From positions 62,001 through 126,000 of the IMG/VR virus record IMGVR_UViG_3300011113_000664: DNA of 64,000 bases; one strand, written 5' to 3'. Both the position numbers and the translations under genes were made by a program. Source of the DNA: a virus. This document shows, piece after piece, positions 4,285 through 59,739 of this stretch. Numbering within the stretch: position 1 is the stretch's first letter; the number at the start of each line of letters is the position of its first letter. The notes under the pieces are model-generated. The model did no database searches. It saw nothing but the letters and a program-made list of their open reading frames with translations, and had not been told where the DNA came from.

Positions 4285-4299
4285 TTTTTAATAAATAGT
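4285..4299 (-). promoter_or_regulatory. Late-promoter-like element before 815-aa gene
   Basis: ACTATTTATTAAAAA (minus strand), ending six bases before the ATG at 4278; 13 of 15 positions match the window consensus ACTATTTATAATAAA. Confidence 0.6.
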
Positions 4300-4336
4300 T
4301 GAAAACAACTAATTATAATAAATTATAAAGTTTATA

Positions 4337-20012: not shown

Positions 20013-20027
20013 ACTATTTATAATAAA
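20013..20027 (+). promoter_or_regulatory. Late-promoter-like element abutting zinc peptidase gene
   Basis: Exact ACTATTTATAATAAA, directly joined to the ATG at 20028 and only five bases after the capsid terminator's T run. A start seven or so bases after a -10-like core would give a leaderless message. Confidence 0.7.
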
Positions 20028-21274: not shown

Positions 21275-22399
21275 TTATTTCCAAATTATTTGTGTTTGTG
21301 CAGGTGCGTATGATAATACCTTATTTAAATTTTCACCAATTGATGCTTTCTTTTCCATAATTTTTTGATATGTAAATTCAGCTAAATCATCTTGTAATTC
21401 TTTAAATATTGCATCTTTTTCTTTATCATAATCATCGGCAAAATATTTATAATCAATTTCTAAAACATCATCTCTTGTTGGTAATTTAATTTTACCTGAT
21501 GTTTTTGCCCAAATAGTTGCTAAGTATTTTTTTACATATGCAACTGATAATCTTCTTACTTTATTTTTAGATGGTGAATTTAGATTATCCCATTTTTTTA
21601 ATCTAATAGGAACATCAGATGGAAGTTTTACAACATCTTCATTTTCTTCTAAACACAAATCTCTTTGATTATTATCTAATGTATCATAATAAAAATACCA
21701 TACTTTAGAACCTTCATATGATTTACCAAATTTACCAACAATTTCTTCTCTACTACCCGGAATTGGATATAAATATAATTTTTTTGTTTTATTTGGTCCA
21801 GGTGCTATTCTATATGTTAATTCACTTTGAATAATCTTTTTCTTTTGTAATCTATCCATAGTGGATAAAATTAATGAGAATGATGGTAACATTGCTTGTG
21901 CAGGAACATTGGCATAATACCATCCTGTTGGTGCGCCAAACCATCCACCACCCATACCAATTGGGTCAAGAATATTAGTTGCTATTTGTGGTGGTGTATA
22001 CCATAAAACTTCATTAATTTCTCTTCCTGATGGAATAGTATATACTTGTGTATCAGCAGAAATAGTTACATAATCACTTTTAAGTTCCCACTCACCTAAT
22101 GTTGATATACCTGTTTGCTTTCCATATGCGATGGCAAAAGATTTTTCAAAGTCAAGAGTTTTGGTTGTAAATGCTTCAACAAAGTTAGCTGAACTAATAC
22201 TTAATCCCTCTAAAGATGACCATTGTTGTTCAATTAACCAATTATCCAAATAAGAAATATAGTCCTCTATAGCCATTTCGACATATGTTTCGATAACATC
22301 ATCTGTAACCCAATCTCCGTAATCACGAACAGGTTCACCTATTGAAACTCTGATTTGTCTGTAAAGTTTTTCTTGCTCTTGTAAATCCTTAAAAATCAT
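21275..22399 (-). CDS. Neck protein, gp13-like
   Basis: 374 residues. The N-terminus RVSIGEPVRDYGDWVTDDVI and the helix that follows match the gp13 opening (a basic stretch, GAP, then acidic helix). The C-terminal YVKKYLATIWAKTSGKIKLP and the helical region with KDAIFKELQDDL parallel gp13's WVKDYATALAKE and EKEALREEL. A Gly/Trp-rich loop (MGGGWFGAPTGWYY) occupies the same place as the Gly-rich region in T4 gp13. Head-completion and neck role. A strong late element ends nine bases upstream, inside the 3' end of the preceding gene. Confidence 0.72.
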   Translation of the reverse strand: MIFKDLQEQEKLYRQIRVSIGEPVRDYGDWVTDDVIETYVEMAIEDYISYLDNWLIEQQWSSLEGLSISSANFVEAFTTKTLDFEKSFAIAYGKQTGISTLGEWELKSDYVTISADTQVYTIPSGREINEVLWYTPPQIATNILDPIGMGGGWFGAPTGWYYANVPAQAMLPSFSLILSTMDRLQKKKIIQSELTYRIAPGPNKTKKLYLYPIPGSREEIVGKFGKSYEGSKVWYFYYDTLDNNQRDLCLEENEDVVKLPSDVPIRLKKWDNLNSPSKNKVRRLSVAYVKKYLATIWAKTSGKIKLPTRDDVLEIDYKYFADDYDKEKDAIFKELQDDLAEFTYQKIMEKKASIGENLNKVLSYAPAQTQIIWK

Positions 22400-22405
22400 T
22401 ATGAC

Positions 22406-22873
22406 TTATTTATTATAAATAGTCATGATATCATCTATGCTTTTTAATTCGTTTACTTCTTCAATCTTTTCTACAATCTCGTTTTTAGGTTTCTTAACTG
22501 ATTGAGTACCACGAAGTGAATTAATTTTTTTACTGATATTTTCTTCAAGTTCTTTCTTTTCTTGTTCAAGTTTTTTATTTAATTCAAAAAGCATTTTTTC
22601 TCTTTCTAAAAATGTATTCTTTATTTGTACAAGAATGTTAAATAACTCATCAGTATGGTCTACAGATTTTAAAAGAAACTGATAAATATTATATTGTCTT
22701 CCGTTATCTTCAAATGTTTTTTTTGGATTTTCTAATATATAAACTTCATTTTCATCAAAAAATGGTGTCATATCCCAATCCGTTGGAAATGACATATAAA
22801 CATCAACAAAATCGTCAAAATTTATTTGAACGATATAATCTTTTAGTTCTTCAATTATTTTTTTAAATTTCAT
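22406..22873 (-). CDS. Hypothetical coiled-coil protein, 155 aa
   Basis: Unrecognised. An N-terminal globular part (1-75, with an acidic and aromatic FDDFVDVYMSFPTDWDM patch) is followed by a coiled coil (about 85-125, EREKMLFELNKKLEQEKKEL). It overlaps the upstream membrane-protein gene by four bases (ATGA), and its 3' end contains the late element of the gp13-like gene. Likely a tail or neck accessory by location only. Confidence 0.5.
   Translation of the reverse strand: MKFKKIIEELKDYIVQINFDDFVDVYMSFPTDWDMTPFFDENEVYILENPKKTFEDNGRQYNIYQFLLKSVDHTDELFNILVQIKNTFLEREKMLFELNKKLEQEKKELEENISKKINSLRGTQSVKKPKNEIVEKIEEVNELKSIDDIMTIYNK
22409..22423 (-). promoter_or_regulatory. Late-promoter-like element before gp13-like gene
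   Basis: Exact ACTATTTATAATAAA on the minus strand, nine bases before the ATG at 22399, located inside the last codons of the 155-residue gene. Confidence 0.7.
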
Positions 22874-27689: not shown

Positions 27690-27704
27690 TTTTTAATAAA
27701 TAGT
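27690..27704 (-). promoter_or_regulatory. Late-promoter-like element before 789-aa gene
   Basis: ACTATTTATTAAAAA (minus strand), 14 bases before the ATG at 27675. Only five bases separate its upstream edge from the plus-strand copy at 27710. Confidence 0.65.
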
Positions 27705-27709
27705 TCTTA

Positions 27710-27724
27710 ACTATTTATAAAAAA
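27710..27724 (+). promoter_or_regulatory. Late-promoter-like element before 1308-aa baseplate gene
   Basis: ACTATTTATAAAAAA, nine bases before the GTG start at 27734, back to back with the copy at 27690-27704. Confidence 0.65.
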
Positions 27725-32624: not shown

Positions 32625-32639
32625 ACTATTTATAATAAA
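32625..32639 (+). promoter_or_regulatory. Late-promoter-like element before sheath gene
   Basis: Exact ACTATTTATAATAAA, ten bases before the ATG at 32650. Confidence 0.7.
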
Positions 32640-32649
32640 ATATTATAAA

Positions 32650-35409
32650 ATGGCAAATTTTAATTTCAAATCACCTAGCGTTAAATTTCAAGAAATAGAC
32701 AGAAGTTTCGCTTCAACCCCATCATTGGGGATAACATCAGTTGGTATGGTTGGTGAAACCTTGAAAGGGCCAGCTTTTTCACCTGTTTTGGTTACAACAA
32801 AAGCTGAATTTAGGAGATATTTTGGTGGAACATCTACCGAAAAATTTTCTAATGGGAAGATGAAATTCTTAGCACCAACTTATGCAAATTCATTTTTAGA
32901 AGAAGGTGACCAATTATATTTCACAAGAATTCTTGGAAAATCAGGATATAATGCAGGTAGAGGTTGGGCTATAACTGTTGGTGGTGCTTGTTTAGCATCA
33001 ACTTCAGCACAAACATCAACACTTTCAAGTTCCACAGGTACAACAACATTTAGTGGTTCAAATGTAGTAACATTTACTGCAAATTCTGTTAATTATAGTT
33101 TTTCAATTACAGGAAATGGAACATATGATAATGTTTCTAATATAACATTTGTAAGAAATAGTTCAGGAGTGTTTACTGCATCAAGTGCATTTGTAACAGT
33201 TTCTTCTTATTATAGTGCATCAACAACAAACATTAGTGGTTCTGCCACATTTACTTCTTTCACTTATACAGCACAGACAGACCAAACCTATGATAATATG
33301 GTTGTTGCTTTATTAAGAAGTAGAGGTACAGGTTTACGAGATGCAGCTACATTTAGGGTAAGTTCAGTAACAGGAACATTTACAGCCACTAATGGTAATC
33401 CACTTGCAAATTTTACATTAACCGCTGTAGGTGCAAGCGTATCAGAAAATTTACAGTTTAACTTGGATGTAACTTCTTCAAGTTATATTTCTAAAGCAAT
33501 GGGAAGTAAAAATTCAGATGCAAAGTCAAACTTATGGGTTGAAGCAGTTTATCCTGATTTAATTAGAAAACTTGCTACTGATGGTACTATTAGTGGTATT
33601 AATAATGTAGTTCCATTTACAAGTGGTACTTTTTCTGATTATACAGCGCAATATACAAATCCTGAAACACCTTGGATTGTTTCTGAAATTAATGGTAGTA
33701 ACATAACTAGATTGTTTAAATTTATTTCATATTCTGATGGTGATGCAGCAAATAAAGAAGTAAAAATTGCAATTGAAAATATTAATCCAACAACAAAAGA
33801 GTTTGATGTTGTGATTAGAGATTACAATGATACTGATGCAAATCCTTCAATTCTTGAAAGATTTGGAAGATGTACTATGAACCCTAATAGTAATAACTTT
33901 ATTATGAGAAGAATTGGTGGTGTTTATAGTAATGCTGATGAATCATTCTTAGAAGATGCAAGGTCTGCTTATGTTTATGTAAATGTTAATGTAAATGCAT
34001 CTATAACATCAATTCCTTGTGGTTTTGAAGGTTATAATTTTAGAAATTATACTGTAGGTGGTGCTAGTACAGCAAATACTCCTGTAATGGTTTATAAAAA
34101 GAGTTATGATAGTGCGGATAAACCACTTAAAACATATCTTGGTATTTCAGAAAAAGCTTTTGATACTGCAAATACTAGGGGTCTTTCAATAAATGATGAC
34201 TTGTTTAAATTTATTGGTGCTAATACTTCAGCAAGTAGTTATACAAAAACTAAAGGTTTCCATTTGGATTCAGGTGCTACAGGAACTTATGTTGATTCTC
34301 AAAATAATGCAATTGGTCAATTTGAAGTAGGTTTAGGTTCAATAACAAATACTGCAAGTGTTGGAATAGGAACTTACTATGCTGATATTACAAAACGCAA
34401 ATTTGTTCTTGTTCCGGCAGGTGGTTTTGATGGTTGGGATATAAACTATGAAATGACAGGTGGAAGGTCAATTGGAAGTACATTTGAAGTAGGTCAGGCT
34501 GATGAATTTGATGAATCAGATTACAATGCTTACAAAGAGGCATATCAAATCTATGAAGATACTGAAAGAACACCAATTAACTTATTTACAACTCCGGGTA
34601 TAAATTGGGATGATAATTTAGGTTTAGTTGAAGATGTTATTGAAATTGTTGAAGAAGTACGTCAAGATGCTCTTTACATTATTGATGCTCCTGATGCAAA
34701 TCTTAATAGTACACCAACTGTTGCAGCAGGTACTTATGCTGATGCTCTTGATGCATCGGGAATTGATTCTTCTTATGCTGCTACTTATGTACCTTGGGTT
34801 AGAAGAAAAGACCCTGATTCAAATACAAACATTTATATTCCACCAACAGGTGAAATTTTAAAAGCAATGGCACTTGCTGATAGAACTTCGTTTATTTGGT
34901 TTGCAACAGCAGGTTTAAATAGAGGTGGTCTTCCAAATGCTAGAGATGTAAGAAAAACATTTAAAGAGTCTGATAGAGATACACTATATCTTGCAAGATT
35001 AAATCCAATTGTTAAATTCTCTAATAATACTCCTGGGATTTTCATCTATGGTCAGAAGACTTTACAAATTGCAGATACTAAACTTGATAGAATTGATGTG
35101 AGAAGACTTCTTCTTTACGCAAAACAAATCATTTCTTCTCAAGCTAGACTTTACTTGTTTGAACCTAATGATGATGTATTGGCAACTAACTTTATTGCTG
35201 AATCTAATAAGAAACTTAAAGTTATTCAAGATAACAGAGGTTTACAAACATTTAGCGTAAGATTAGATAATACATTAAATACACCTGAAAGTAGAGACAG
35301 AAATGAAATCTACTTTGTGATTGACTTGTTACCAATCGGTGCTGTTGAATTTATTGGTCTAACATTTGTTGTAAATAAATCTACAAGTTCAATTCAATTT
35401 AATGGATAA
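32650..35409 (+). CDS. Tail sheath protein (gp18-type)
   Basis: Contractile sheath subunit. The N-terminus FKSPSVKFQEIDRSF and GITSVGMVGETLKGPAF is typical, and the C-terminal third (about 640-919) has the conserved core: LGLVEDVIEIVEEVRQDALY, RDTLYLARLNPIV, the GQKTLQ motif, DRIDVRRLL and the final PIGAVEFI segment. At 919 residues it is about 260 longer than T4 gp18. Residues about 110-220 are a Ser/Thr-rich beta insertion likely exposed on the sheath surface. Late element ten bases upstream. The tube gene follows 38 bases later. Confidence 0.95.
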   Translation: MANFNFKSPSVKFQEIDRSFASTPSLGITSVGMVGETLKGPAFSPVLVTTKAEFRRYFGGTSTEKFSNGKMKFLAPTYANSFLEEGDQLYFTRILGKSGYNAGRGWAITVGGACLASTSAQTSTLSSSTGTTTFSGSNVVTFTANSVNYSFSITGNGTYDNVSNITFVRNSSGVFTASSAFVTVSSYYSASTTNISGSATFTSFTYTAQTDQTYDNMVVALLRSRGTGLRDAATFRVSSVTGTFTATNGNPLANFTLTAVGASVSENLQFNLDVTSSSYISKAMGSKNSDAKSNLWVEAVYPDLIRKLATDGTISGINNVVPFTSGTFSDYTAQYTNPETPWIVSEINGSNITRLFKFISYSDGDAANKEVKIAIENINPTTKEFDVVIRDYNDTDANPSILERFGRCTMNPNSNNFIMRRIGGVYSNADESFLEDARSAYVYVNVNVNASITSIPCGFEGYNFRNYTVGGASTANTPVMVYKKSYDSADKPLKTYLGISEKAFDTANTRGLSINDDLFKFIGANTSASSYTKTKGFHLDSGATGTYVDSQNNAIGQFEVGLGSITNTASVGIGTYYADITKRKFVLVPAGGFDGWDINYEMTGGRSIGSTFEVGQADEFDESDYNAYKEAYQIYEDTERTPINLFTTPGINWDDNLGLVEDVIEIVEEVRQDALYIIDAPDANLNSTPTVAAGTYADALDASGIDSSYAATYVPWVRRKDPDSNTNIYIPPTGEILKAMALADRTSFIWFATAGLNRGGLPNARDVRKTFKESDRDTLYLARLNPIVKFSNNTPGIFIYGQKTLQIADTKLDRIDVRRLLLYAKQIISSQARLYLFEPNDDVLATNFIAESNKKLKVIQDNRGLQTFSVRLDNTLNTPESRDRNEIYFVIDLLPIGAVEFIGLTFVVNKSTSSIQFNG

Positions 35410-36446: not shown

Positions 36447-38183
36447 TTATCCTTCGCACATCAGGCATTCGGAATATAAATCTCTTTGTTGCTTTGTATC
36501 TGCTCTTAGTACAGATTCAGACCTTAAATAATAAAGTGATTTCAATCCAAGTTTCCATGCCTCAATATGAACTTGATTAATAAATTTAGCAGGAGCATCA
36601 CTAAAGAATGCAAGATTTAATGATTGTCCTTGGTCAATATATCTTTGGCGAATACCTGCTTGCCTAACAAGTTCAAGTTGATTAATTTCTTTAAATGTTT
36701 TGAATACAGCTTTTTCTTCAGCACTCATACATCTAACATTTACAACTGAACCTTTATCTTCAGATATTGCATCCCAAACTTGTGGTAAATTTTTACCTTT
36801 TGATTCAAGTAATTGTTCTAAGAATGGATTTCTTCTAATGTGTAAACCTTTAGCATCATCATCCATATAAAGATTTGCTGCTAGTGGTTCAACACCTTGT
36901 GAATAACCACCTGCAAGTTTTGATGAAGACCTATTTGGTGCAATTGCAAGAAGAGTTAAATTTCTTCTTCCTGTACCTTTACACCATTCAGGTTCACCAT
37001 ATTCTTTTGCCATATCAAATGTGGCTCTTTCAGATTCATCTCTAAGATGTTTAAAGATAATATTTGTCCATGCATTTGCTTCAATAGAAATAAATGGAAT
37101 CATTTTACTTTGAAGAAAACTATGCCATCCTAAAGCACCCAATCCTAATGCTCTTGACTTTGTAGCAAAGCGTACAGCATCTTCAATACCTTTGTAGTCA
37201 CCTGAATTACCCTTTTGAAGAAAGTCTTCCATTACTGCATCTAAAAACATTGTAGATAGATATACAGTATCAGTATCTTTCCATTCATCAAACTTTACAA
37301 GATTTAAAGAAGAAAGACAACATACTAATGTGTGGGTTTCATCAGTAGGTAAAAAGATTTCAGAACAAAGATTTGAATGTCTAATCTTTAAATCATTTTG
37401 TTTCCACCATTCAGGTACAGCATTATTAGCATTGTCAATGAACATTGTATAAGGTTCTCCTGTCTTTACTCTTTTCTTTAAAGTTTCAAGCCAAATCTCC
37501 CTTTCTTTACCATTTTTTTCAATGACTTTATTCATAAATTCATCTGTAAAGATTGCTCCTTGATGAATATTATGTGATTGTCTATTTACATCACCTTTTG
37601 GTTCTCTTACTTCAAGAAATTCTTTAAATTCGCCATGTTCTGCATTCAGATAGATAGCTACAGCACCTCTTCTTGTTTTACCTTGCTTTGATGCTAGAAT
37701 AGTTGAATCAAATGATTTAATGAATGGGATAATACCATCAGAACTACCACCTCTACCATCTTTGATTTTAGTACCGATTGCTCTAATAGCGGAAAAATCA
37801 TAAGCAGTACCTCCACCATACTTTGAAAGCATTGCCATTTCAAGGTTTTTACGATAGATTTCATACATAGAATCACCAACATGAGAAGAAAAACAGCTAA
37901 TTGGTAATGCTACATCTGTTCCAAGATTAGCCATTACAGGAGTAGATGGAATTAACCAACCTTTCCAAAGAATATCAAAAAATCTTTCTTGCAATTCAGG
38001 TTTATTAAGTAACTCTGCTGCTCTTGATGATACTCTTACATATCCATCTTTTGGTGTTTCACCATCAATAAGGTATCCACCTTTAATCGTGGTTAAATAT
38101 AATGCATTGTTACCCCATTCAGGAAAGTCAATACCAACTTTCCATCCCATATTTCTTGCTATATCGTGTGTTTCTGTTTTCAT
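36447..38183 (-). CDS. nrdA: Ribonucleoside-diphosphate reductase, alpha subunit (class I)
   Basis: Catalytic subunit reducing ribonucleotides to deoxyribonucleotides for phage DNA synthesis. Visible residues: Cys97 in PISCFSS (redox pair), Cys273 and Glu275 in NLCSEIF (thiyl radical site), a second redox Cys at 288/289 in CCLSSLNL, the SLYYLRSE tyrosine pair for radical transfer and a C-terminal CLMC that passes electrons from thioredoxin or glutaredoxin. At 578 residues it is much shorter than E. coli NrdA (761). It begins near the ten-stranded barrel, so the N-terminal ATP-cone that senses dATP is absent. It lies six bases after nrdB. Confidence 0.95.
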   Translation of the reverse strand: MKTETHDIARNMGWKVGIDFPEWGNNALYLTTIKGGYLIDGETPKDGYVRVSSRAAELLNKPELQERFFDILWKGWLIPSTPVMANLGTDVALPISCFSSHVGDSMYEIYRKNLEMAMLSKYGGGTAYDFSAIRAIGTKIKDGRGGSSDGIIPFIKSFDSTILASKQGKTRRGAVAIYLNAEHGEFKEFLEVREPKGDVNRQSHNIHQGAIFTDEFMNKVIEKNGKEREIWLETLKKRVKTGEPYTMFIDNANNAVPEWWKQNDLKIRHSNLCSEIFLPTDETHTLVCCLSSLNLVKFDEWKDTDTVYLSTMFLDAVMEDFLQKGNSGDYKGIEDAVRFATKSRALGLGALGWHSFLQSKMIPFISIEANAWTNIIFKHLRDESERATFDMAKEYGEPEWCKGTGRRNLTLLAIAPNRSSSKLAGGYSQGVEPLAANLYMDDDAKGLHIRRNPFLEQLLESKGKNLPQVWDAISEDKGSVVNVRCMSAEEKAVFKTFKEINQLELVRQAGIRQRYIDQGQSLNLAFFSDAPAKFINQVHIEAWKLGLKSLYYLRSESVLRADTKQQRDLYSECLMCEG

Positions 38184-38189
38184 ATATTT

Positions 38190-39155
38190 TTAAAATAAAT
38201 CATCTACAAAGTTCCAATCTTCATTAGGTTTTGAATATGATGTTTCTCTATTGGCAAAGAAATCAGTTTGTTGTTCACCTGATGTTGCAATATAAAACCA
38301 TTCCATATCCATAAGCATTTCATCATCAACAGTATAAACAGGTGTCAACATTAACTCTTTAAGTTTTCTGTTTGCTCTGTCATACATGAAATTTTTAAGA
38401 GTTCTTTTTGAAATTGTTTCTAAATCACCAAGTTCAAATATTTTATCAATGTAATTGAATTCATTTGTTATTGCTAAATCAAGACCTCTATAAAGAGTAT
38501 CTTTTAATTCATCTGTCCAAATGTAAGGATTTTCTTCAATAAGTGTTCTAAATAATTTACAGCCTGATTCAGAATGTAAAGATTCATCACGAATAGAGAA
38601 AATCATTTGCTGACCAATACCTGTCATCATATTCTTTTTTCTAAAAGAAAGAAGAACAGCAAATGAAGAATATAATTGCATACCTTCTGCACAAGCAGAG
38701 AATAATGCAAGACTTCTAGCAATATTAGAAAGATTAGTATCATTAGGGTCGATTTCCATCAACACATTTAGTTTTGCCATTGTTTCTTCATCTTCTAAAA
38801 ATGCTTTAAAGTCTGTAAGACCCAATGTATCGTTTAGATATGAATATGCAACTGCATGGATTGTTTCAAATGCACCAAATGTACTTGCCATCATCTTAAC
38901 TTCAGGAACAGGAAACCATTTAGTTACATATGTTGACCAATAATCATTAACAACAGTTTCTGTTTGTGTAAATCCCTTTAAGATATTACCAATAACATTC
39001 TTTTCTTCAATTGTTAATTCATTGTTCCAATCTTTAACATCTTTTTGCATGTTAATTTCCGTATGTAACCAATGTGCATTTTGTTGTTTAAACCATGCTT
39101 CGTAAGCCCATTGATATTCAAATGGTTTGAATTCTAATCTTTCTTGTGTAATCAT
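38190..39155 (-). CDS. nrdB: Ribonucleoside-diphosphate reductase, beta subunit (class I)
   Basis: Ferritin-like radical subunit partnering NrdA. Metal ligands by alignment to the family: Glu66 (in TQTETVV), Glu97 and His100 (FETIH), Glu157 (AEGMQLY), Glu191 and His194 (RDESLH). Tyr104 is four residues after His100, at the radical tyrosine position. The first ligand is Asp in E. coli and appears to be Glu here. The C-terminus EDWNFVDDLF is the tail that docks onto NrdA. A terminator lies just upstream, so nrdBA has its own promoter and lacks the late element. Confidence 0.95.
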   Translation of the reverse strand: MITQERLEFKPFEYQWAYEAWFKQQNAHWLHTEINMQKDVKDWNNELTIEEKNVIGNILKGFTQTETVVNDYWSTYVTKWFPVPEVKMMASTFGAFETIHAVAYSYLNDTLGLTDFKAFLEDEETMAKLNVLMEIDPNDTNLSNIARSLALFSACAEGMQLYSSFAVLLSFRKKNMMTGIGQQMIFSIRDESLHSESGCKLFRTLIEENPYIWTDELKDTLYRGLDLAITNEFNYIDKIFELGDLETISKRTLKNFMYDRANRKLKELMLTPVYTVDDEMLMDMEWFYIATSGEQQTDFFANRETSYSKPNEDWNFVDDLF

Positions 39156-39173: not shown

Positions 39174-39208
39174 TAAAAAAATCCTGCTTATATTACTACA
39201 AACAGGAT
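39174..39208 (-). terminator. Rho-independent terminator upstream of nrdB
   Basis: On the minus strand, an imperfect stem starting ATCCTG and closing CAGGAT around a long A/T-rich loop is followed by seven T. It ends the sigma/primase/PhoH unit before the reductase genes. Confidence 0.8.
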
Positions 39209-39222
39209 ATGTTTTGTTATTG

Positions 39223-39477
39223 TTATTTCAATCTTGTTGTTCTATAGATGAACCAAAAAGCACCCAACAGAAATTTAGGTAATAAAATTAGTGTTAGGGT
39301 TTTTAAAAACTCTTCATCTACCCACTCAATTCCAATGAATTGCATTACCGAAAAAATTACTGTTGGTACAATCAAATATAGAGCAAATTTAGGTAAATAA
39401 AATGCAAATCCAAGAAAAAGATTGTCTAATATTTTACCTAATTTGCTGTGTACTATGTTATCTAAAAACTTTTTCAT
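39223..39477 (-). CDS. Small membrane protein, 84 aa
   Basis: Two hydrophobic segments (about 20-48 with YLPKFALYLIVPTVIFSVMQ, and 60-80 with LTLILLPKFLLGAFWFIY). Start and stop of this gene and of the upstream PhoH-like gene overlap by one base. No recognised family. It is last in the sigma/primase/PhoH transcript. Confidence 0.6.
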   Translation of the reverse strand: MKKFLDNIVHSKLGKILDNLFLGFAFYLPKFALYLIVPTVIFSVMQFIGIEWVDEEFLKTLTLILLPKFLLGAFWFIYRTTRLK

Positions 39478-40229
39478 TATTTTTTCTTTTCATCAAATAA
39501 TTTGGTTATTTTTTGGATTAATGGACTTCTTACGCAGTCTGAATCTACAAATTCAACGACCTTAACATGGTCATCAAAATCTTTAAAATGTTTAGTTAAA
39601 AACATTAATCCATTATCTTCTTTGTCTTTAAAATCTCTTTGTCTAATATCACCAATAATAATCATTTTAGCATTTTCTTCTAAACGAGTCATTACTGTTT
39701 CTGCATTATCAACTGATACATTTTGAAATTCATCAAATATGTTAATATTATCTAAAGATAAACCTCTTAAATTACCCATTGGAATTACTTCAATAATTTT
39801 TTCTTTAAAAAGTATTTCTAAAGCAATTGGAGATAATAATTTATTTAACTGCATTGAGTAAGACATTAAAACATACTCAAGTTTTTCTTCAACACCTCCG
39901 GGTAATATACCAATATCTTCATTTTGAAGTTGTTTTAATGGTTTGAATATTCTAATTTTTGTATATTCATTATCATCACTTAAAAGTAAGTTTATTGCTT
40001 GTACTAATGCTATAAAAGTTTTACCTGCACCTGCTATACCTGTAGCAATAACATACATTGATTCATTATCTAAAATATCTCTAACAAATTTTCCTTGATT
40101 TTCTGTTTTAGGAGCAATTTTTAAATACGGCTTTCCAACCTTTTTTCTGATTTCATTTTTCTTTGCCTTTAACCTATCTTCATCAGTTTCTTCAACTTGG
40201 TATTTTTTTATTTTCCTATTCACACTCAT
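39477..40229 (-). CDS. PhoH-like P-loop ATPase
   Basis: 250 residues. Walker A GIAGAGKT at 64-71 and Walker B IFDEFQN with Asp166/Glu167, plus a GDIRQRDFKDKEDNGL stretch equivalent to the sensor region of PhoH proteins (GD..Q.D). The family consists of helicase-related ATPases, frequent in large phages, with suspected roles in RNA or phosphate metabolism but none proven in phage. Basic N-terminal extension (1-45). It lies seven bases after the ECF-like sigma gene. Confidence 0.88.
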   Translation of the reverse strand: MSVNRKIKKYQVEETDEDRLKAKKNEIRKKVGKPYLKIAPKTENQGKFVRDILDNESMYVIATGIAGAGKTFIALVQAINLLLSDDNEYTKIRIFKPLKQLQNEDIGILPGGVEEKLEYVLMSYSMQLNKLLSPIALEILFKEKIIEVIPMGNLRGLSLDNINIFDEFQNVSVDNAETVMTRLEENAKMIIIGDIRQRDFKDKEDNGLMFLTKHFKDFDDHVKVVEFVDSDCVRSPLIQKITKLFDEKKK

Positions 40230-40235
40230 TTGTTT

Positions 40236-40757
40236 TCATGTAAATAGGTCATCGGTTAGATTTGTTTTTAAAAAAACTATTAATTTTTGGTCAAAATCCT
40301 TTATTTTTTGATATGAAAAGTTCATCTTTTTTATAATTGTCTTATTGTCATAATGTTTCAAATATTTATTTTCATAAAAATTTTTTAATGTTTCATCTTG
40401 ACAAATTTTCATAATTTCATTAAGGGAATCAAATTGTTTTTCATAATCTGTTGTAATAAAAACAGGTTCAATAGTTTGTTCTTTATCATCAATTGATGTG
40501 TACTTTTTATATTTTTTTCTGTTAATCTTCCTTACATAATCATAAAAATGATTTTGTGTAACAGTATACACCCAATTATCTAAAGTTTTTTTATTTAACT
40601 TCTTATGGTAATTAATAATAATTTTGCTCATTGTTTCCGCACTTAAATCTTTTGAAAGTTGTGCATCGGAGGTTTTTGAGTAAAAATAATTCAAGACTAA
40701 TTTTTCATACTTTTTGTAAATTTGTTTGTCTAACTTTTCCTTTTCTATATCCAACAT
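40236..40757 (-). CDS. ECF-like RNA polymerase sigma factor
   Basis: 173 residues with a two-part ECF layout. Residues about 35-84 resemble region 2: LSAETMSKIIINYHKKL, then DNWVYTVTQNHFYDYVRKIN with basic residues after it. Residues about 110-164 resemble region 4 with a helix-turn-helix (YLKHYDNKTIIKKMNFSYQK). No region 3 is seen. Such factors direct host RNA polymerase to specific promoters. In T4, late genes use a small sigma-like protein (gp55, 185 residues), and this one is of similar size and ends DDLF, vaguely like clamp-binding tails. It is a candidate reader of the late element in this window, by inference. Confidence 0.7.
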   Translation of the reverse strand: MLDIEKEKLDKQIYKKYEKLVLNYFYSKTSDAQLSKDLSAETMSKIIINYHKKLNKKTLDNWVYTVTQNHFYDYVRKINRKKYKKYTSIDDKEQTIEPVFITTDYEKQFDSLNEIMKICQDETLKNFYENKYLKHYDNKTIIKKMNFSYQKIKDFDQKLIVFLKTNLTDDLFT

Positions 40758-40783
40758 TAAAATTTTTCATTATACTTTATAGC

Positions 40784-41746
40784 TTATTGTTTTAAATTCG
40801 TTTTCATTAGTTCAAATATATAATCTTTTCCATTATTTTGTATATTTTCATTCAAATCAGCATTATCTTCATAGGTTTGTATCATTACATTTGTTAAACC
40901 TAAGTTCAATAATCGTTCCTGAATTTCTAAAGATGAATTTGGTGTCTTAGAATAGTTAAAATCTTGTCTTTTTTCTATTGCATCAGGATTTAACATTATA
41001 ATAACATTTGGTTTATATTTTATTAATTTTGATAAAATATTATCTTGTAAAGACTTACCTAATAATACAATAGTATTAATAGGAATTGTAGTGTATTCAA
41101 AATATGCTTCAACAATATAAACCGTTGAGTTCCAATTTATATGTTTTTCATTAAAAATTATCTCTTTTTTATCTGCTTGTGGTAATTTATAAGCATGATG
41201 TTTATCAACATCATTTGTAAATGCTCTAGTAATATAAAAATTTATTTTACCATTCAAATCATATGATGGTATTACAATTCTATTTTTATAATAACCTTCA
41301 AGACAGAAACCTAAGTTGTCTCTTTTTATTAAAAAATCAGAAACCTTTCTATTTTTTAAATATGTATATGCTTGAACATGTAATGGATTTGTTTTATCCA
41401 TTTTTTGAAAAGAGATAAATTCTTTTGGGAGACCAAAAATTTTATATTTCTTTATTTGTGACAAAATAACAGGTTCATTTTCATATTTTAAAAATTCTGC
41501 AATTTGTTTTCTTGTTGCATACTTTTTAAACACAAAAAATAATGGTCCTGACAAACCACACTTCCAACACTTACATACTTTATTGTATTTTCCCCTATTA
41601 TTTAATGATATATTAACTTCAAGATTATATTTATCATCAGCAACACCATAATTTAATTTAGCGCATTCAGGACAATTAAATTGCATCTGTGTTGATGCAT
41701 TATTTTTGGGATGACCAAAAACTTCTTCAAGAAGATTATAAATCAT
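40784..41746 (-). CDS. DNA primase-like protein (zinc finger plus TOPRIM)
   Basis: 320 residues. N-terminal zinc-ribbon: CPEC at about 25-28, and CKCWKCG near 60 after a strand-rich segment, as in CHC2-type primases. The middle part has NRIVIPSYDLNGKINFYITR, common in DnaG-like cores. A TOPRIM-like segment follows: VYIVEAYFE (usual EGxxD) and MLNPDAIEK (usual LDxD). The acidic Glu is kept, but the first Asp becomes Glu and one Asp of the DxD becomes Asn, so activity may be altered. It overlaps the sigma factor gene by 11 bases. No replicative helicase is present in the window. Confidence 0.8.
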   Translation of the reverse strand: MIYNLLEEVFGHPKNNASTQMQFNCPECAKLNYGVADDKYNLEVNISLNNRGKYNKVCKCWKCGLSGPLFFVFKKYATRKQIAEFLKYENEPVILSQIKKYKIFGLPKEFISFQKMDKTNPLHVQAYTYLKNRKVSDFLIKRDNLGFCLEGYYKNRIVIPSYDLNGKINFYITRAFTNDVDKHHAYKLPQADKKEIIFNEKHINWNSTVYIVEAYFEYTTIPINTIVLLGKSLQDNILSKLIKYKPNVIIMLNPDAIEKRQDFNYSKTPNSSLEIQERLLNLGLTNVMIQTYEDNADLNENIQNNGKDYIFELMKTNLKQ

Positions 41747-42578
41747 TTTTAATCTTGTTTATACCCTTATCATGAATTTTTTTAATATCTTTTTCTGACA
41801 TGTTTAAAAGTTTCGATATTTGATTGAAACTCAATTCAGGTTTATCACTCAAGCCATATCTATAGTTAATTATTAATTTTTCAATTTTATTTAAACCTTT
41901 TAATGATAAAGATTTTAAATCACTATTAAGATAAATAAATTCATCATTTAAAACTGATGTTGGTAACATTTCTTCATAATTTATTTCTTCGGAACTATTT
42001 ACGGTAGTATAAATTGATAAAATATTGTTATCATCAATAGCATTGACCGATTTTGCAATTACTTCACTAGCAGTTTCTTCAATTAAATCATCCTTTATAT
42101 CATCTATATTTGGGTCAAAACCGTATTTATTATAAAAATTATTTTTTAATTCTAAATACTTTTGATTTATTGAATGTTGTTTGATTGGTTGTTTAATGAT
42201 TTTTGATTCCTTTGCAATTCCTTCTAATATTGCTTGTTTAATCCACCAAACTGCATAAGTACTAAATTTATAACCTTTATTTGGGTCAAATTCTTCAACA
42301 GCTTTTATTAAACCAATATTTCCTGATGATATGATGTCGGACAATTGATAAAAACTGCTATTATGGTAGTATTTAGCAACATTTATTACAAATCTTAAAT
42401 TATTAATAATTAATAATTCCTTAATTTTTGGACACTTTGTTGTTTGATATTCATAAAACATTTCGGTTTCTTGTTTTTTTGAAATCTCATCAATATTTCT
42501 AATATCTTGATGATAAAGTTTTAAAATATCGGATGTGTCCTTTGTTATTTTGATTGTATTTGATGATATTTTCTTCAT
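41736..42578 (-). CDS. RNA polymerase sigma-70 family factor (primary type)
   Basis: About 280 residues. It has a complete region 2: INNLRFVINVAKYY, LSDIISSGNIGLIKAVEEFD and GYKFSTYAVWWIKQAI, the most conserved sigma-70 segment, used for core binding and -10 recognition. Region 3 (SKIIKQPIKQHSINQKYLEL) and region 4 (LNKIEKLIINYRYGLSDKPE, then FNQISKLLNMSEKDIKKIHD) follow. Region 1.1 is missing, as in group 2-3 factors. I chose the ATG at 42578; an upstream ATG at 42623 would add an unlikely hydrophobic leader. It heads, with a small 98-residue gene, the unit carrying primase, a second sigma and PhoH. Confidence 0.93.
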   Translation of the reverse strand: MKKISSNTIKITKDTSDILKLYHQDIRNIDEISKKQETEMFYEYQTTKCPKIKELLIINNLRFVINVAKYYHNSSFYQLSDIISSGNIGLIKAVEEFDPNKGYKFSTYAVWWIKQAILEGIAKESKIIKQPIKQHSINQKYLELKNNFYNKYGFDPNIDDIKDDLIEETASEVIAKSVNAIDDNNILSIYTTVNSSEEINYEEMLPTSVLNDEFIYLNSDLKSLSLKGLNKIEKLIINYRYGLSDKPELSFNQISKLLNMSEKDIKKIHDKGINKIKNDL

Positions 42579-42632
42579 AGATAAACAATAAACAAATATA
42601 AAAATTGCTCTTTTTATATGCAAAAAAAATTT

Positions 42633-46469: not shown

Positions 46470-46484
46470 ACTATTTATAATAAA
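46470..46484 (+). promoter_or_regulatory. Late-promoter-like element before terminase-small candidate
   Basis: Exact ACTATTTATAATAAA, four bases before the ATG at 46489 and divergent from the gp6 copy. Confidence 0.7.
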
Positions 46485-46488
46485 GTAT

Positions 46489-46911
46489 ATGCCAAGACCT
46501 AAACGCTCCAAATTATCTCTAACACAGGAAAGTATCGAAAAACATATGAATGAAGTTTATGGTATTTTAGAACACTATAAACAAATGGGTGTTAGACATT
46601 ATAACTTTGTACTTAGAATCATCGAAGAATTGGGTTCAGATAGCATCGAAGACCCTGTAAGGCTTCAGTTGATGGCTCAACTTGAGCAATCAAGAAACAA
46701 CTCCCTAAATGCTTTTAAAGAGTATTTAAGAATGAAGACTGATTTAATCACCAAACACCTTAATAGTGTTAAAATTTTTGGTGATTTGGATATTAAAACC
46801 AATAAAAGTAAAGCTACATCAGGCGATAATAATTCTTTAAGTAAAGAAGACCAAGATGAGGTTCAAAAAATGATTCAAGAATTAATGGATATGAAACAAA
46901 CTAAGTTTTAA
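46489..46911 (+). CDS. Helical protein, terminase small subunit candidate, 140 aa
   Basis: Basic start (MPRPKRSKLSLTQESIEKHM), then long helices (ILEHYKQMGVRHYNFVLRII, LQLMAQLEQSRNNSLNAFKE). A central coiled coil of this size resembles gp16-type small terminase subunits, and no other candidate exists near the gp17 gene. No DNA-binding domain is certain, so the call is tentative. A strong late element ends four bases before the ATG, and the gene lies alone between two minus-strand units, overlapping the convergent gene by four bases. Confidence 0.45.
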   Translation: MPRPKRSKLSLTQESIEKHMNEVYGILEHYKQMGVRHYNFVLRIIEELGSDSIEDPVRLQLMAQLEQSRNNSLNAFKEYLRMKTDLITKHLNSVKIFGDLDIKTNKSKATSGDNNSLSKEDQDEVQKMIQELMDMKQTKF

Positions 46912-50921: not shown

Positions 50922-52322
50922 TTATACCACCAATCTAATATTAAATGGTATTACTGTAGAAGGTAATTTTTTAACAGGTTCACTTAATTTTCCTATTCCT
51001 ATTAATTCACCTGCTGCATTATAAAGTCCTATTGATGTAATAAATGTTGGTGCTTCTTCACCAGCTAAATATGCACCTTCGTATGTTGAATTTGTTGTTG
51101 ATGCAAATTCATTTGGTCCGGCAAGACAAATAATATTTTGAACAAATTCTGTTGTAATTGAATCAAATTGAGAATTTGAAATTGATGTATTTGTAAAATA
51201 TATTTTAGCAAAATTTTTATCACCCGAATATGTAAGTCCTGAGTTAATTCCATTAAATCCTGAACTTGTTCCTGCTGTATATCTAAAATTTGCTACTAAT
51301 GTTGGGTCAGTAATAACAGCAAATCCTTTATCTTGATATAAAATACCAACAGGTTTATCAAAAGCAGGATATGCTGTTGCACCATCGGTAACACCATCAT
51401 ATGAAGCATATATTTTTTTACTTTCATCCCCTAAAACACTTGGGAACTGATTAGTTTTAGACCAAACATCCCATAATAAATTATTTGAAAGTTGTCTAAC
51501 TTTAACCACTATAGTAAATGTTTTACTATCATTAGATACAGGATTATCTAAATGTGCTTTTAGTGTTAAAGAAGTAATTCCGGGTGTATTTATTGGAAAC
51601 CAAGAATTTTTATTTATAACAGCTTCACCAACTGTAAATTTTACATTGTCAACACCTGTTGGAGGTGTATATTCAATATATACTTCATCATCTGTATTAA
51701 GTATTACAGTAGAAAAGTCATATTTGTTACTAGCATCACCTGTTACTGTAACAGTTGTTGATGTCAAAATAGTAATTTCAGTTCCTTTATCTTTTGGTAC
51801 AGCAATATCATTTGAGTATAAAAATGTTACATTGGTATTAAAATCATTATCAGCAGTTGGTTCAAAACCAAAATAATTTTTTCTTTTTTCTGAATACCTA
51901 CTGTTTAATTTATTTCCAATAAAAGTACTAGTAGAAGGTGTACCATCAAAACCAAAATATGTACCATAAACAGTTGTTGCTGTTTCAACGCTGTTTAAAG
52001 TAACCGGAAGAGTTAATTTAAAAGTTTTACCATCAATTAGTTCACCATATTCACCTTTTGGTATTTCAATAACAATTATGCTGTCAACATTTAAATCTTT
52101 TAAGGCAGTACTATTATAAGTGTTATAATACTCATTTAATTCTGCTGAAGTAATTGGAAAATTAAAAGATTTAAATAAATTTGCATAAGGTGTTGAAGTA
52201 TTAAGTTTTTCTGCATAAGTATACAAAAGTTTATTCCCACTTAAACTTGAACTATTTCTATATGGTACTTTTTGAAAACCACCTGAAGATACAATTTCTT
52301 TTAATCCATCTTGTGCTGCCAT
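50922..52322 (-). CDS. Tail fibre/adhesin-array protein with GLY-type C-terminus, 466 aa
   Basis: Beta- and Thr-rich. The C-terminal 40 residues, FITSIGLYNAAGELIGIGKL then SEPVKKLPS, match those of the 684-residue gene (YITEAAIYDQNNSLVAIGKL then NNPIKK). They also resemble the ITEIGLYDxxGNLIA motif of P2-type tail fibre proteins. The N-terminus (LKEIVSSGGFQKVPYRNSS) differs from the four adjoining paralogues. It has its own late element 11 bases upstream and is the last gene of the array. Probably part of the receptor-binding apparatus or its baseplate anchor. Confidence 0.6.
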   Translation of the reverse strand: MAAQDGLKEIVSSGGFQKVPYRNSSSLSGNKLLYTYAEKLNTSTPYANLFKSFNFPITSAELNEYYNTYNSTALKDLNVDSIIVIEIPKGEYGELIDGKTFKLTLPVTLNSVETATTVYGTYFGFDGTPSTSTFIGNKLNSRYSEKRKNYFGFEPTADNDFNTNVTFLYSNDIAVPKDKGTEITILTSTTVTVTGDASNKYDFSTVILNTDDEVYIEYTPPTGVDNVKFTVGEAVINKNSWFPINTPGITSLTLKAHLDNPVSNDSKTFTIVVKVRQLSNNLLWDVWSKTNQFPSVLGDESKKIYASYDGVTDGATAYPAFDKPVGILYQDKGFAVITDPTLVANFRYTAGTSSGFNGINSGLTYSGDKNFAKIYFTNTSISNSQFDSITTEFVQNIICLAGPNEFASTTNSTYEGAYLAGEEAPTFITSIGLYNAAGELIGIGKLSEPVKKLPSTVIPFNIRLVV

Positions 52323-52333
52323 GATATATAAAT

Positions 52334-52348
52334 TTTATTATAAATAGT
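52334..52348 (-). promoter_or_regulatory. Late-promoter-like element before 466-aa array gene
   Basis: Exact ACTATTTATAATAAA on the minus strand, 11 bases before the ATG at 52322. Confidence 0.7.
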
Positions 52349-57390: not shown

Positions 57391-59445
57391 TTAAAAATCC
57401 ATATCTAATTCTACTGTAAATAATTTATTGGTACTCTTTTTAATAGGATTATTTAATTTACCAATAGCGACTAATGAATTATTTTGGTCATAAATAGCAG
57501 CTTCGGTTATATACACACTATCATTACTATCCCATGTTGGATTATTAGAAGTGTTATATTCATTAAATCCTAAAATATGTGACATTTTTGTTCTATAAAC
57601 TGTTGCCTTAATTTCTGTGTTTATATTGCCAAGTAATATACTTTCCTCACCAAAACCTAATTTTGTTGTTGTTGAATAATCTCCTGTTGTTGGTAATGTT
57701 CCTATCCAATTTTCAATATTATATGTTGTACCACCTGTATAATCATCATTATTTAATGTATAATTTTGGGTAAGTGCTGTTACAGGTATTGAATATACAC
57801 CCCATAAACCATAATCTCGTAATTTTGATGTATAATCAATTAATTTCCAAGTTGCAGGATTTGGTGTTAGATTTGTATTAACTTTTTGAGCCAAAATATA
57901 AAATTTGTTTGCGTTAAACCCTGTTCCATCTGATGAAGATACATCAGATACCATGAATTTTAAATCAGATGATTTAAAACTAAATAATACATTTTGGTCT
58001 GATGTAGTAGATGGATATATGTATGTTGTATAACCACAATGAATACCACCTCTTAAACCTAAACTAGTATTAGTATTGTAACCATCATTATATGCGTTTT
58101 CATTAGTAAATAAATATGTTAAAGCAACATATTGTGTTGAATTTTTAGGTAATAGTGAATTTGTACTTGGAGAAGTTGCAATAGAACCTTGCCAATTTGG
58201 TAATGGTAAAGTATGTGACCTGTCACTTTTAAGTGCTAAAACATTTACTAATTCTTCATCCTCAATAACTGCAATTCTTAAATCATTAAATACTTTCCCC
58301 ACAATATTTTGAGAAGTTGATTCAACAAGATTATAATATTCAGTTGTAAATCCTGTTAATGTTGTTAGTTCTGTTTTCTTTTGTGTATCTGCCGATAAAA
58401 CAATACCCATTGTTCGGTTTTCTTTACCATGATACATAACTGTCGGTAAATCAATTCTAAATGTATTATTATAAAATCCTTCACCGTAATAATTTGATAT
58501 TGATTTATTAGTATAATGAATTATTGCAAATTTAGATGTAGAATTATCAAGCGATAAACCTTGAATGTATTCTTTAAAACCTGAAAATATTGCACTATCA
58601 TAATATTGCGGTACATAACTATTTGTTATACCTGCTAAAGTATCTTTATAAACAATATTTAAATTCCAAACAGGTACATCATCGTTTGCACCAATATTAC
58701 AAGTTGAATCAAACGATAGAGTGTTATAATTCCAATAACCAACAGTTGTTCCTGTACTATAGTAATTATCAACTGCATTATTTGGAGGATAAATATAAAT
58801 TAAACATTTATATGTTCCACCATTTCCATTAAAACGTGGTAAAGTCCTATCAAGTGTTATACCCGTACCATTTACAGCTTGAACTTTATACCAAAGAAAT
58901 TGTCTTGGATAGTTTTCACCAATAACACCTGTTGTACTCGTAAATACTGTTAATTTTGGATTTCTAAAATCAATTAAAAGTGTAGTACCTGTTATAATAT
59001 TTGTTGCTGATGCTACATTAATTACACTACCACCTGTAAAACCTGTAATAAAAGCAGTTGTCATGCCTTTAATATATGTTGATGATGTTAATGCTGTAAA
59101 ACCTGCTGAAGTAGAACCTGTAAAAAATCCTCTTTGTTTAGCGGTATTTTTAACTTGTGTAGTGACAGGTAGAATATTATCAATAGTTTTTTTTGTTACT
59201 GTTGAGTCACTTGATGAAATTGGAACACCATATTTAATATTAGGATTTGCATCTTTTGGTCGCATTATTGAAAGGTCAGAACCATCAATTACACTTTCAA
59301 AATTTCTTAAAAAATTATAATCAACTTCTGAATCACCAAATTCAATTCTTGTAAAGTTTAAATTACCTGAAGCAAGTAGTAGTCTACCTATATTTGTCAG
59401 TTTTGTGTTAATTACAACTGCATCTGTTTTTTGTATAAAACTCAT
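57391..59445 (-). CDS. First protein of adhesin array, 684 aa, tail fibre-like
   Basis: The N-terminus (1-50) has NTKLTNIGRLLLASGNLNFT then RIEFGDSEVDY, a divergent form of the array module (LTxxGRxxLxxG, then FxLxDxDxNY). The middle is a long beta-rich region. The end, YITEAAIYDQNNSLVAIGKL then NNPIKK, is shared with the 466-residue gene and resembles P2-type fibre motifs. Thus it combines features of both ends of the array. A late element overlapping that of the divergent holin candidate lies 11 bases upstream and should drive the whole run to 52358. Confidence 0.65.
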   Translation of the reverse strand: MSFIQKTDAVVINTKLTNIGRLLLASGNLNFTRIEFGDSEVDYNFLRNFESVIDGSDLSIMRPKDANPNIKYGVPISSSDSTVTKKTIDNILPVTTQVKNTAKQRGFFTGSTSAGFTALTSSTYIKGMTTAFITGFTGGSVINVASATNIITGTTLLIDFRNPKLTVFTSTTGVIGENYPRQFLWYKVQAVNGTGITLDRTLPRFNGNGGTYKCLIYIYPPNNAVDNYYSTGTTVGYWNYNTLSFDSTCNIGANDDVPVWNLNIVYKDTLAGITNSYVPQYYDSAIFSGFKEYIQGLSLDNSTSKFAIIHYTNKSISNYYGEGFYNNTFRIDLPTVMYHGKENRTMGIVLSADTQKKTELTTLTGFTTEYYNLVESTSQNIVGKVFNDLRIAVIEDEELVNVLALKSDRSHTLPLPNWQGSIATSPSTNSLLPKNSTQYVALTYLFTNENAYNDGYNTNTSLGLRGGIHCGYTTYIYPSTTSDQNVLFSFKSSDLKFMVSDVSSSDGTGFNANKFYILAQKVNTNLTPNPATWKLIDYTSKLRDYGLWGVYSIPVTALTQNYTLNNDDYTGGTTYNIENWIGTLPTTGDYSTTTKLGFGEESILLGNINTEIKATVYRTKMSHILGFNEYNTSNNPTWDSNDSVYITEAAIYDQNNSLVAIGKLNNPIKKSTNKLFTVELDMDF

Positions 59446-59452
59446 TGGAAAT

Positions 59453-59467
59453 ACTATTTATAATAAA
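59453..59467 (+). promoter_or_regulatory. Late-promoter-like element before holin candidate
   Basis: Exact ACTATTTATAATAAA, 11 bases before the ATG at 59479. It overlaps the minus-strand copy by 11 bases, the pair forming ACTATTTATAATAAATAGT. Confidence 0.7.
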
Positions 59468-59471
59468 TAGT
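59457..59471 (-). promoter_or_regulatory. Late-promoter-like element before adhesin array
   Basis: ACTATTTATTATAAA (minus strand), 11 bases before the ATG at 59445, facing and overlapping the plus-strand copy at 59453. Confidence 0.65.
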
Positions 59472-59478
59472 TAGTATT

Positions 59479-59739
59479 ATGTTTGGTTTATTTTCAAAAT
59501 TTATAAATGATTTACTTAGGGATAGTAATTCTAAAAAAACTTCACTAACAAGAATACTAGCTATTATGTTATTTTTTATTGTTATATGGTTTCATATTGA
59601 AGCAATTTCAATAATGGTTTCTAAACAAGAGATTGACCACGCATTAATATTTGAAGATTTTGCTTTTATTAGTGCATTGATTATGCATAAAAATTATATT
59701 AATAGAAATAGCAAAGAAGAGCAAGTTGAACCTTCTTAA
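59479..59739 (+). CDS. Small membrane protein, holin candidate, 86 aa
   Basis: One strong membrane segment (about 26-47, LAIMLFFIVIWFHIEAISIM) and a weaker second hydrophobic stretch (about 54-70) with basic ends. Size, charged tail and late promoter suit a holin, but holins cannot be identified from sequence alone, and no endolysin gene is adjacent. It overlaps the convergent RmlC gene by four bases. Confidence 0.4.
   Translation: MFGLFSKFINDLLRDSNSKKTSLTRILAIMLFFIVIWFHIEAISIMVSKQEIDHALIFEDFAFISALIMHKNYINRNSKEEQVEPS

What the first reader, a model, noticed from the sequence alone, without database searches (positions are those of the whole stretch)
40236..42578. Two phage sigma factors of different classes in one operon with primase and PhoH
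A primary-type sigma-70 (regions 2, 3 and 4, no region 1.1) and a smaller ECF-like factor are encoded 1 kb apart in the same unit. Both could reprogramme the host polymerase, one for middle and one for late promoters. T4 uses a single divergent factor, gp55, with clamp loading. The ECF-like protein is close to gp55 in size and ends LTDDLF, which could be a clamp-contact tail.
Basis: partly seen in the sequence, partly recalled or inferred. Interest (0 to 1): 0.65.

Follow-up and report, generated by a model that had tools for sequence, protein, structure and literature searches.

The report
Phage with three sigma factors
A marine virus of bacteria carries two different promoter-choosing proteins side by side in one operon, and elsewhere in its genome an unannotated third one related to phage T4's late-gene switch; it is this third protein, not the small one in the operon, that probably turns on the late genes.

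Summary
At 42578-41736(-) lies a primary-type sigma (Pfam sigma-70 r2 61.6 bits, r4 30.0), and at 40757-40236(-) an ECF-like sigma (r2 29.6 bits), separated by primase. The order sigma-primase-sigma-PhoH holds in related marine phage contigs. The operon begins at a host-type TTTG-N20-TATATTTG promoter and ends at a conserved terminator before nrdB.

The role assignment changes. The ECF-like protein is not gp55-like (hhalign 7%). A third, unannotated protein outside the window (record 164497-165294, minus) is (92%, E 5.5e-7), with T4 promoter-pocket residues F86 and Y97 kept. They also occur in Flavobacterium phage immuto, which has only the gp55-type protein, and in two distant records with gp55-type and primary-type but no ECF-like protein. 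The late promoters therefore track the gp55-type protein. No gp45, gp33 or DnaN was found, so the clamp-tail idea has no known partner; the tail (D[DN]LFT) is nevertheless invariant.

Most likely this is a three-sigma programme: host sigma-A first, the two operon sigmas early to middle, gp55-type late. What the two operon sigmas recognise remains unknown.

The parts
41736..42578 (-). Primary-type (group 1/2-like) sigma factor, 280 aa: regions 2 to 4, no region 1.1
   Evidence: Pfam r2 61.6 and r4 30.0 bits; PHROG 351 E 1.1e-41; aligns with SigA chains over 17-277
40784..41746 (-). DNA primase (DnaG-type), overlaps the large sigma gene by 11 nt
   Evidence: PHROG 47 E 1.3e-28; ORF
40236..40757 (-). 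ECF-like sigma factor, 173 aa
   Evidence: Pfam Sigma70_r2 29.6 bits over cut-off; PHROG 1740 E 4.2e-8; C-terminal helix-turn-helix modelled at pLDDT about 70-86; 79-90% identical in 10 aligned relatives
40239..40253 (-). C-terminal tail D[DN]LFT of the ECF-like sigma; function untested
   Evidence: D169, L171, F172, T173 invariant in 11 aligned sequences while neighbouring positions vary
39477..40229 (-). PhoH-like ATPase, 6 nt downstream of the ECF-like sigma gene
   Evidence: Pfam PhoH E 3e-43
39223..39477 (-). 84 aa protein, last gene of the operon
   Evidence: ORF; syntenic in relatives
39181..39208 (-). Intrinsic terminator closing the operon before nrdB
   Evidence: 12-pair stem followed by T run; folding z-score -3.8; stem conserved in 8 aligned sequences
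42593..42624 (-). Host-type promoter TTTG-N20-TATATTTG, 14 nt before the large sigma gene
   Evidence: Pattern match; TTTG of the -7 box invariant in 10 aligned sequences, TA kept in 9; TATATTTG enriched upstream of genes without the other two motifs, 9 of 44 against 0.63 expected
20013..20027 (+). Late promoter ACTATTTATAATAAA, directly abutting the ATG of 20028-20426
22409..22423 (-). Late promoter ACTATTTATAATAAA, 9 nt before the gene at 21275-22399
32625..32639 (+). Late promoter ACTATTTATAATAAA, 10 nt before the gene at 32650-35409
46470..46484 (+). Late promoter ACTATTTATAATAAA, 4 nt before the gene at 46489-46911
52334..52348 (-). Late promoter ACTATTTATAATAAA, 11 nt before the gene at 50922-52322
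59453..59471 (.). Two overlapping divergent late promoters (ACTATTTATAATAAA on +, ACTATTTATTATAAA on -) serving 59479-59739(+) and 57391-59445(-)

Best explanation
The phage (170 kb record, T4-type virion genes, probable Bacteroidota host) encodes three sigma factors of three classes. (1) Host RNA polymerase with host sigma-A reads TAnnTTTG promoters, including the one in front of the sigma-primase-sigma-PhoH operon, so the two window sigmas are made early to middle, with replication genes. (2) The primary-type sigma probably takes over host core polymerase at -10-driven promoters: its -10 reading region is well conserved while its -35 reading helix is not. The ECF-like sigma, found only in this marine clade, probably adds a further small set of promoters. 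The targets of both are unknown. (3) An unannotated gp55-type protein outside the window (record 164497-165294, minus) reads the late promoters CTATTTAnnnnAAA, a variant of T4's TATAAATA, which sit 0-20 nt before structural genes and should give late mRNAs with almost no leader. Shown: the genes, the conserved operon with its promoter and terminator, the three motif classes, and which sigma class goes with the late motif across four genomes. Inferred: core binding, timing, promoter recognition, targets.
For: Sigma identities. Conserved operon, terminator and TAnnTTTG promoter. gp55-type family against gp55 family: 92%, E 5.5e-7 with immuto, Mel-JY01 and LR756508 members added; 84.5%, E 6.9e-6 with distant members also added; 6.9% and 5.1% for the small and large sigma. 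Pfam Sigma70_r2 independently hits the gp55-type ORFs of distant phages, one over cut-off at 26.9 bits. T4 residues named in PMC7892883 map as E70 to D79, D74 to D83, F86 to F95, Y97 to Y112, T99 to S114 (my reading). Late motif: 37 CTATTTAN4AAA against 4.7 expected; TATTTATN3AAA upstream of genes, observed/expected: G000 24/1.0, immuto 11/0.5, G017 15/0.6, G008 11/0.6. immuto lacks both window sigmas. Sigma-A -7 box TAnnTTTG in Flavobacterium: PMC9723704.
Against: No expression or biochemical data. The gp55-type homology is remote: the gp55 profile does not find the protein at a significant E-value (0.07), E77 of T4 is not kept (I86), and the Foldseek search of its model was uninformative. 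TAnnTTTG upstream of genes could be read by the large sigma instead of, or as well as, the host factor: it is enriched in three phages with that sigma and not in immuto. The late-motif correlation rests on four genomes.
Confidence: 0.6

Rival explanations
1. The ECF-like sigma is the late factor or a late co-activator (a gp33 stand-in), reaching a sliding clamp through its D[DN]LFT tail.
For: Tail invariant in 11 sequences. Stronger purifying selection than the large sigma. gp33 is not detectable in the record. The tail is short, hydrophobic and acidic like the T4 clamp-binding ends described in PMC2988020.
Against: The late motif is present in immuto, G017 and G008, which lack this protein. 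No gp45-type clamp or DnaN found, with positive controls ringing in T4, P-SSM2 and bacterial genomes. Not gp55-like. The tail does not repeat the LDF-L pattern of T4 gp55 (SLDFLY) and gp33 (TLDFLL).
Confidence: 0.12
2. The primary-type sigma is a host sigma-A mimic that keeps TAnnTTTG promoters (including its own operon) active after host sigma-A is neutralised: a middle sigma with positive feedback.
For: TAnnTTTG upstream of genes, observed/expected: G000 22/11.8, G017 19/6.1, G008 14/6.2, all carrying this sigma; immuto, without it, 3/4.6. Its own operon has this promoter in 9 of 10 aligned sequences. Its -10 reading region is conserved.
Against: Host sigma-A alone explains TAnnTTTG promoters (PMC9723704). 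Only four genomes. No anti-sigma protein was looked for. Its -35 reading helix differs between relatives.
Confidence: 0.25
3. One or both window sigmas read the strong early-type promoter TTGTAAGATT-N10/11-TTTGATATATTAAGG found upstream of about 30 small genes at 12.9-36.4 kb of the record.
For: Motif hugely enriched (28 genes against 0.3 expected). Its -35 part is longer and its spacing 2 nt wider than immuto's early promoter, and immuto lacks both sigmas.
Against: These look like immediate-early genes, which normally need no phage protein. The -10 half (TATATTWAGGTA) is shared with immuto, which has neither sigma. No relative with this region was found to test it.
Confidence: 0.12
4. The two proteins are decoys that occupy host core polymerase to shut off host transcription, without promoter choice of their own.
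For: No promoter class could be assigned to either protein by comparison; the large sigma's -35 reading helix drifts between relatives.
Against: The -10 recognition and melting region of the large sigma (FSTYAVWWIKQ) is nearly invariant, which a decoy would not need.
Confidence: 0.1

Closest known systems
Phage T4 late transcription system (gp55 sigma, gp33, gp45 clamp)
   Same: gp55-type sigma with several domain-2 residues kept; late promoter differs from TATAAATA at 2 of 8 positions; T4-type virion genes
   Different: gp55-type protein is longer (265 aa against 185); no gp33 or gp45 detectable; late sites lie 0-20 nt before the start codon; two further sigmas present
RpoD-like sigmas of group 2 jumbo phages (PMC7824862), PHROG 351
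   Same: Primary-type phage sigma close to cellular RpoD; 7 of 20 distant carriers examined also encode the gp55-type protein
   Different: Here it shares an operon with an ECF-like sigma, primase and PhoH
Bacterial ECF sigma factors (SigM, SigL, SigH type)
   Same: Region 2 profile match; helix-turn-helix C-terminal domain; length
   Different: Below NCBIfam cut-offs; no anti-sigma gene recognised in the operon; invariant D[DN]LFT tail; region 4 sequence degenerate
Flavobacterium phage vB_FspM_immuto (NC_055915)
   Same: T4-type Bacteroidota phage, gp55-type protein (KNV73_gp118, annotated hypothetical), same late motif
   Different: Lacks both window sigmas; annotated with family A DNA polymerase genes, whereas the record here has a family B match and no family A match

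Membership tests
Primary-type (group 1/2) sigma-70 | Regions 2 and 4 above curated cut-offs | tested here: met
   Pfam r2 61.6/24, r4 30.0/24.1
Primary-type (group 1/2) sigma-70 | Region 3 between them | tested here: inconclusive
   No region 3 model hit, but continuous alignment with SigA over 17-277
Primary-type (group 1/2) sigma-70 | Binds core polymerase and directs promoter opening | not testable with these tools
   Needs biochemistry
ECF sigma factor | Region 2 match | tested here: met
   Pfam Sigma70_r2 29.6 bits, cut-off 24
ECF sigma factor | Region 4 match after region 2, no region 3 | tested here: inconclusive
   No Pfam region 4 hit; modelled C-terminal helix-turn-helix resembles sigma region 4 chains (rank 14 and below); NCBIfam sigma70-ECF 32.3 bits below its 42.9 cut-off
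gp55 family: ECF-like window protein | Homology to gp55 domain 2 | tested here: not met
   hhalign probability 6.9%
gp55 family: record 164497-165294 | Homology to gp55 domain 2 | tested here: met
   hhalign 92%, E 5.5e-7; 84.5%; tblastn chain to immuto, LR756508 and weakly to Cr30 gp55; Pfam region 2 on distant members
gp55 family: record 164497-165294 | C-terminal sliding-clamp-binding motif | tested here: not met
   Ends KLKDDYLSI, end not conserved; so it is called gp55-type, not a full gp55 orthologue
T4 late transcription system | T4-type late promoter upstream of late genes | tested here: met
   TATTTATN3AAA 24 against 1.0 expected; capsid, portal, terminase and tail genes among the targets
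T4 late transcription system | gp45 clamp and gp33 co-activator | tested here: not met
   PHROG 223 and PF16805 ring in T4, not here; very divergent versions not excluded

The most novel reading that the evidence does not exclude
A lineage of Bacteroidota phages runs T4-style late transcription from a gp55-type sigma without gp45 clamp and gp33, the longer gp55-type protein doing the job alone, while two further sigmas of different classes, expressed from one replication operon, form separate earlier steps: a three-sigma cascade on one host polymerase.
Probability: 0.3. Interest if true: 0.75.

Novelty: new variant of a known kind. Interest (0 to 1): 0.52.

Why it matters
T4 late transcription is the textbook case of a sigma factor that works with a moving replication clamp. 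Finding a gp55-type sigma and T4-type late promoters in phages of another phylum with no recognisable clamp or co-activator makes it testable whether the clamp link is essential or a later addition. Having a gp55-type, a primary-type and an ECF-like sigma in one phage also gives a natural system for how sigma factors compete for one polymerase. The gp55-type members in immuto and Mel-JY01 are annotated only as hypothetical proteins.

Tried and rejected
ECF-like protein as gp55 homologue: rejected. A small-sigma hit in immuto (E 1e-5 with filters off): rejected, because it aligns only the linker and the start of the C-terminal part with an unrelated acidic ORF. Genome-wide count of TTTG-N18-22-TAnnTTTG: no enrichment (19 against 16.7); only position-specific counts upstream of genes are meaningful. 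Fold of the gp55-type protein: model pLDDT 65, Foldseek hits are helical noise with scattered sigma chains, no support either way. Sigma region 2 and 4 profiles built from cellular sigmas: too insensitive, since T4 gp55 and the ECF-like sigma used as positive controls also failed. A home-made clamp profile used a wrong cyanophage ORF and is disregarded. Genome-collection scan with the large sigma: relatives at about 25-33% identity in several phyla, pattern-limited, so its origin is unresolved. E. coli-type promoter scan: at chance level. IMG/VR scan for the early-type promoter: 11 contigs with one match each, no contig with the array. The idea that the primary-type sigma shares Bacteroidota sigma-A -10 residues is from memory and was not tested.

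Full report
WHAT IS THERE. The window is bases 62001-126000 of a 170,056-base IMG/VR virus record, 27.7% G+C. It encodes T4-type portal, terminase, major head and baseplate proteins; the record has a family B DNA polymerase match. On the minus strand, in order, are: a primary-type sigma (41736-42578), primase (40784-41746), an ECF-like sigma (40236-40757), PhoH (39477-40229) and an 84 aa protein (39223-39477). The operon is bounded by a promoter and a terminator. Upstream is TTTG-N20-TATATTTG ending 14 nt before the ATG; the TTTG of its -7 box is invariant in ten aligned sequences and the TA is kept in nine. Downstream is a 12-pair intrinsic terminator before nrdB, conserved in eight aligned sequences. 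TAnnTTTG is the -7 box of Flavobacterium sigma-A (PMC9723704). The host is therefore probably a Bacteroidota, though no direct host evidence was obtained.

CONSERVATION. Fourteen IMG/VR contigs carry the small sigma; one copy (L014) is frame-broken in its contig. Where the contigs extend, the order large sigma-primase-small sigma-PhoH-84aa is kept. The small sigma is 79-90% identical among those aligned, the large one 61-82%. Both are under purifying selection, the small one more strongly. In the large sigma, the -10 reading and melting region is nearly invariant and the -35 helix is not. The last residues of the small sigma, D[DN]LFT, are conserved, with D, L, F and T invariant.

A THIRD SIGMA. 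Reading the rest of the record showed a 265 aa protein at 164497-165294(-) with no PHROG or Pfam hit. tblastn finds it in immuto (E 1e-4), an unnamed 484 kb phage (1e-7), Mel-JY01 (0.03) and, weakly, in the annotated gp55 of Caulobacter phage Cr30 (E 6), all over the same or an overlapping stretch. A profile of this family matches a profile of eight gp55 proteins at 92%, E 5.5e-7; the small and large window sigmas give 6.9% and 5.1%. Adding seven distant members gives 84.5%, E 6.9e-6. Pfam Sigma70_r2 by itself hits the same ORFs in seven distant phages, once over its cut-off. By my reading of the alignments, the T4 residues described in PMC7892883 map as E70 to D79, D74 to D83, F86 to F95, Y97 to Y112 and T99 to S114; E77 is not kept, and H95 is F, as in the cyanophage proteins. 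Two other contigs also carry all three sigmas: IMGVR 3300017761_005873 (L010, L030) and 3300022752_004478 (L003, L025).

PROMOTER CLASSES. Three motif classes were found upstream of genes. Late: [AT]CTA[TA]TTAnnnnAAA, mostly 0-20 nt before the start codon of about 45 genes, 37 exact CTATTTAN4AAA against 4.7 expected. The gap between CTATTTA and AAA is fixed while the distance to ATG varies, so AAA belongs to the promoter and not to a ribosome site (inference). Written as T4 positions -13 to -6, TATTTATA differs from TATAAATA only at -10 and -9; if start sites are placed as in T4, late mRNAs have leaders of about 0-20 nt (inference). Early-type: TTGTAAGATT-N10/11-TTTGATATATTAAGG upstream of about 30 small genes at 12.9-36.4 kb. 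Host-type: TATATTTG upstream of 9 of 44 remaining genes against 0.63 expected.

WHICH SIGMA READS THE LATE PROMOTERS. Complete immuto has the gp55-type protein but neither window sigma, and has the late motif before gp20, sheath, tube, tape measure and other genes. Twenty distant records with the large-type sigma were searched: seven also have the gp55-type; the ECF-like protein was not found in those seven or in one further distant record tested. Two of the seven, G017 (whole) and G008 (140 kb of 270), were read and have the late motif. TATTTATN3AAA upstream of genes, observed/expected: G000 24/1.0, immuto 11/0.5, G017 15/0.6, G008 11/0.6. The only phage sigma class common to all four is the gp55-type. 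This is correlation over four genomes, not proof.

WHAT THE TWO WINDOW SIGMAS DO. Not established. Their operon has a host-type promoter and no late motif, and its other genes include primase, so they are probably made early to middle. A possible clue for the large sigma is that TAnnTTTG promoters are enriched in three phages that carry it and not in immuto. No motif could be tied to the ECF-like sigma.

THE CLAMP IDEA. PHROG 223 (gp45) and PF16805 (gp33) ring in T4 but not in this record, immuto, G017 or G008; DnaN was also not found. A very divergent clamp is not excluded: the polymerase ends ILDIIKEV, vaguely like the T4 clamp-binding ends SLDFLY (gp55) and TLDFLL (gp33). The tail could also contact host DnaN. 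Untested.

STANDING AGAINST KNOWN SYSTEMS. Primary-type sigmas in large T4-type phages are known (PMC7824862). gp55 sigmas are known in T4-related phages; a gp55-type sigma in these phages, with the same promoter type and without recognisable clamp or co-activator, and the three-class combination, were not found in the papers searched, which cover open-access papers only. The finding is rated a new variant of a known kind.

Noticed in passing
G000 record 12.9-36.4 kb (L017, L018): About 30 small genes each with its own near-identical promoter TTGTAAGATT-N10/11-TTTGATATATTAAGGTA, many preceded by a terminator-like hairpin; part of the region (24-38 kb) is clearly richer in G+C (0.31-0.37) than the rest (about 0.27). 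Probably the early, host-takeover region.
   Followed up: partly
window 59453-59471, 27690-27724, 4285-4322: Late promoters occur as overlapping or closely spaced divergent pairs, in one case sharing most of the same 19 bases.
   Followed up: no
L002, L006, L008, L014 compared with window 36447-39155: The nrdB-nrdA pair downstream of the operon is replaced by a much more divergent version (29-49% identical) in some relatives while flanking genes stay far more similar: apparent swapping of ribonucleotide reductase genes.
   Followed up: no
L003 and L006, between the small sigma and PhoH genes: About 1.2 kb of extra sequence separates the small sigma from the PhoH match in two relatives, in the same place, with the PhoH match starting only at residue 52-55.
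   Followed up: no
G018 record (362 kb), 103874, 230083, 340471, 343125: One distant phage record has four sigma region 2 matches, including the gp55-type: an even larger sigma set.
   Followed up: no
G000 record about 8.48-8.56 kb (L017): A tRNA-like sequence with a CAT anticodon-like stretch lies upstream of the ORF at 8569; ARAGORN found no tRNA in the window itself and was not run here.
   Followed up: no
window 5675-8380 (+): 901 aa protein matching tRNA nucleotidyltransferase over its first third, with a C-terminal part matching a PHROG of unknown function; similar sequence also lies near the large sigma in distant phages.
   Followed up: no
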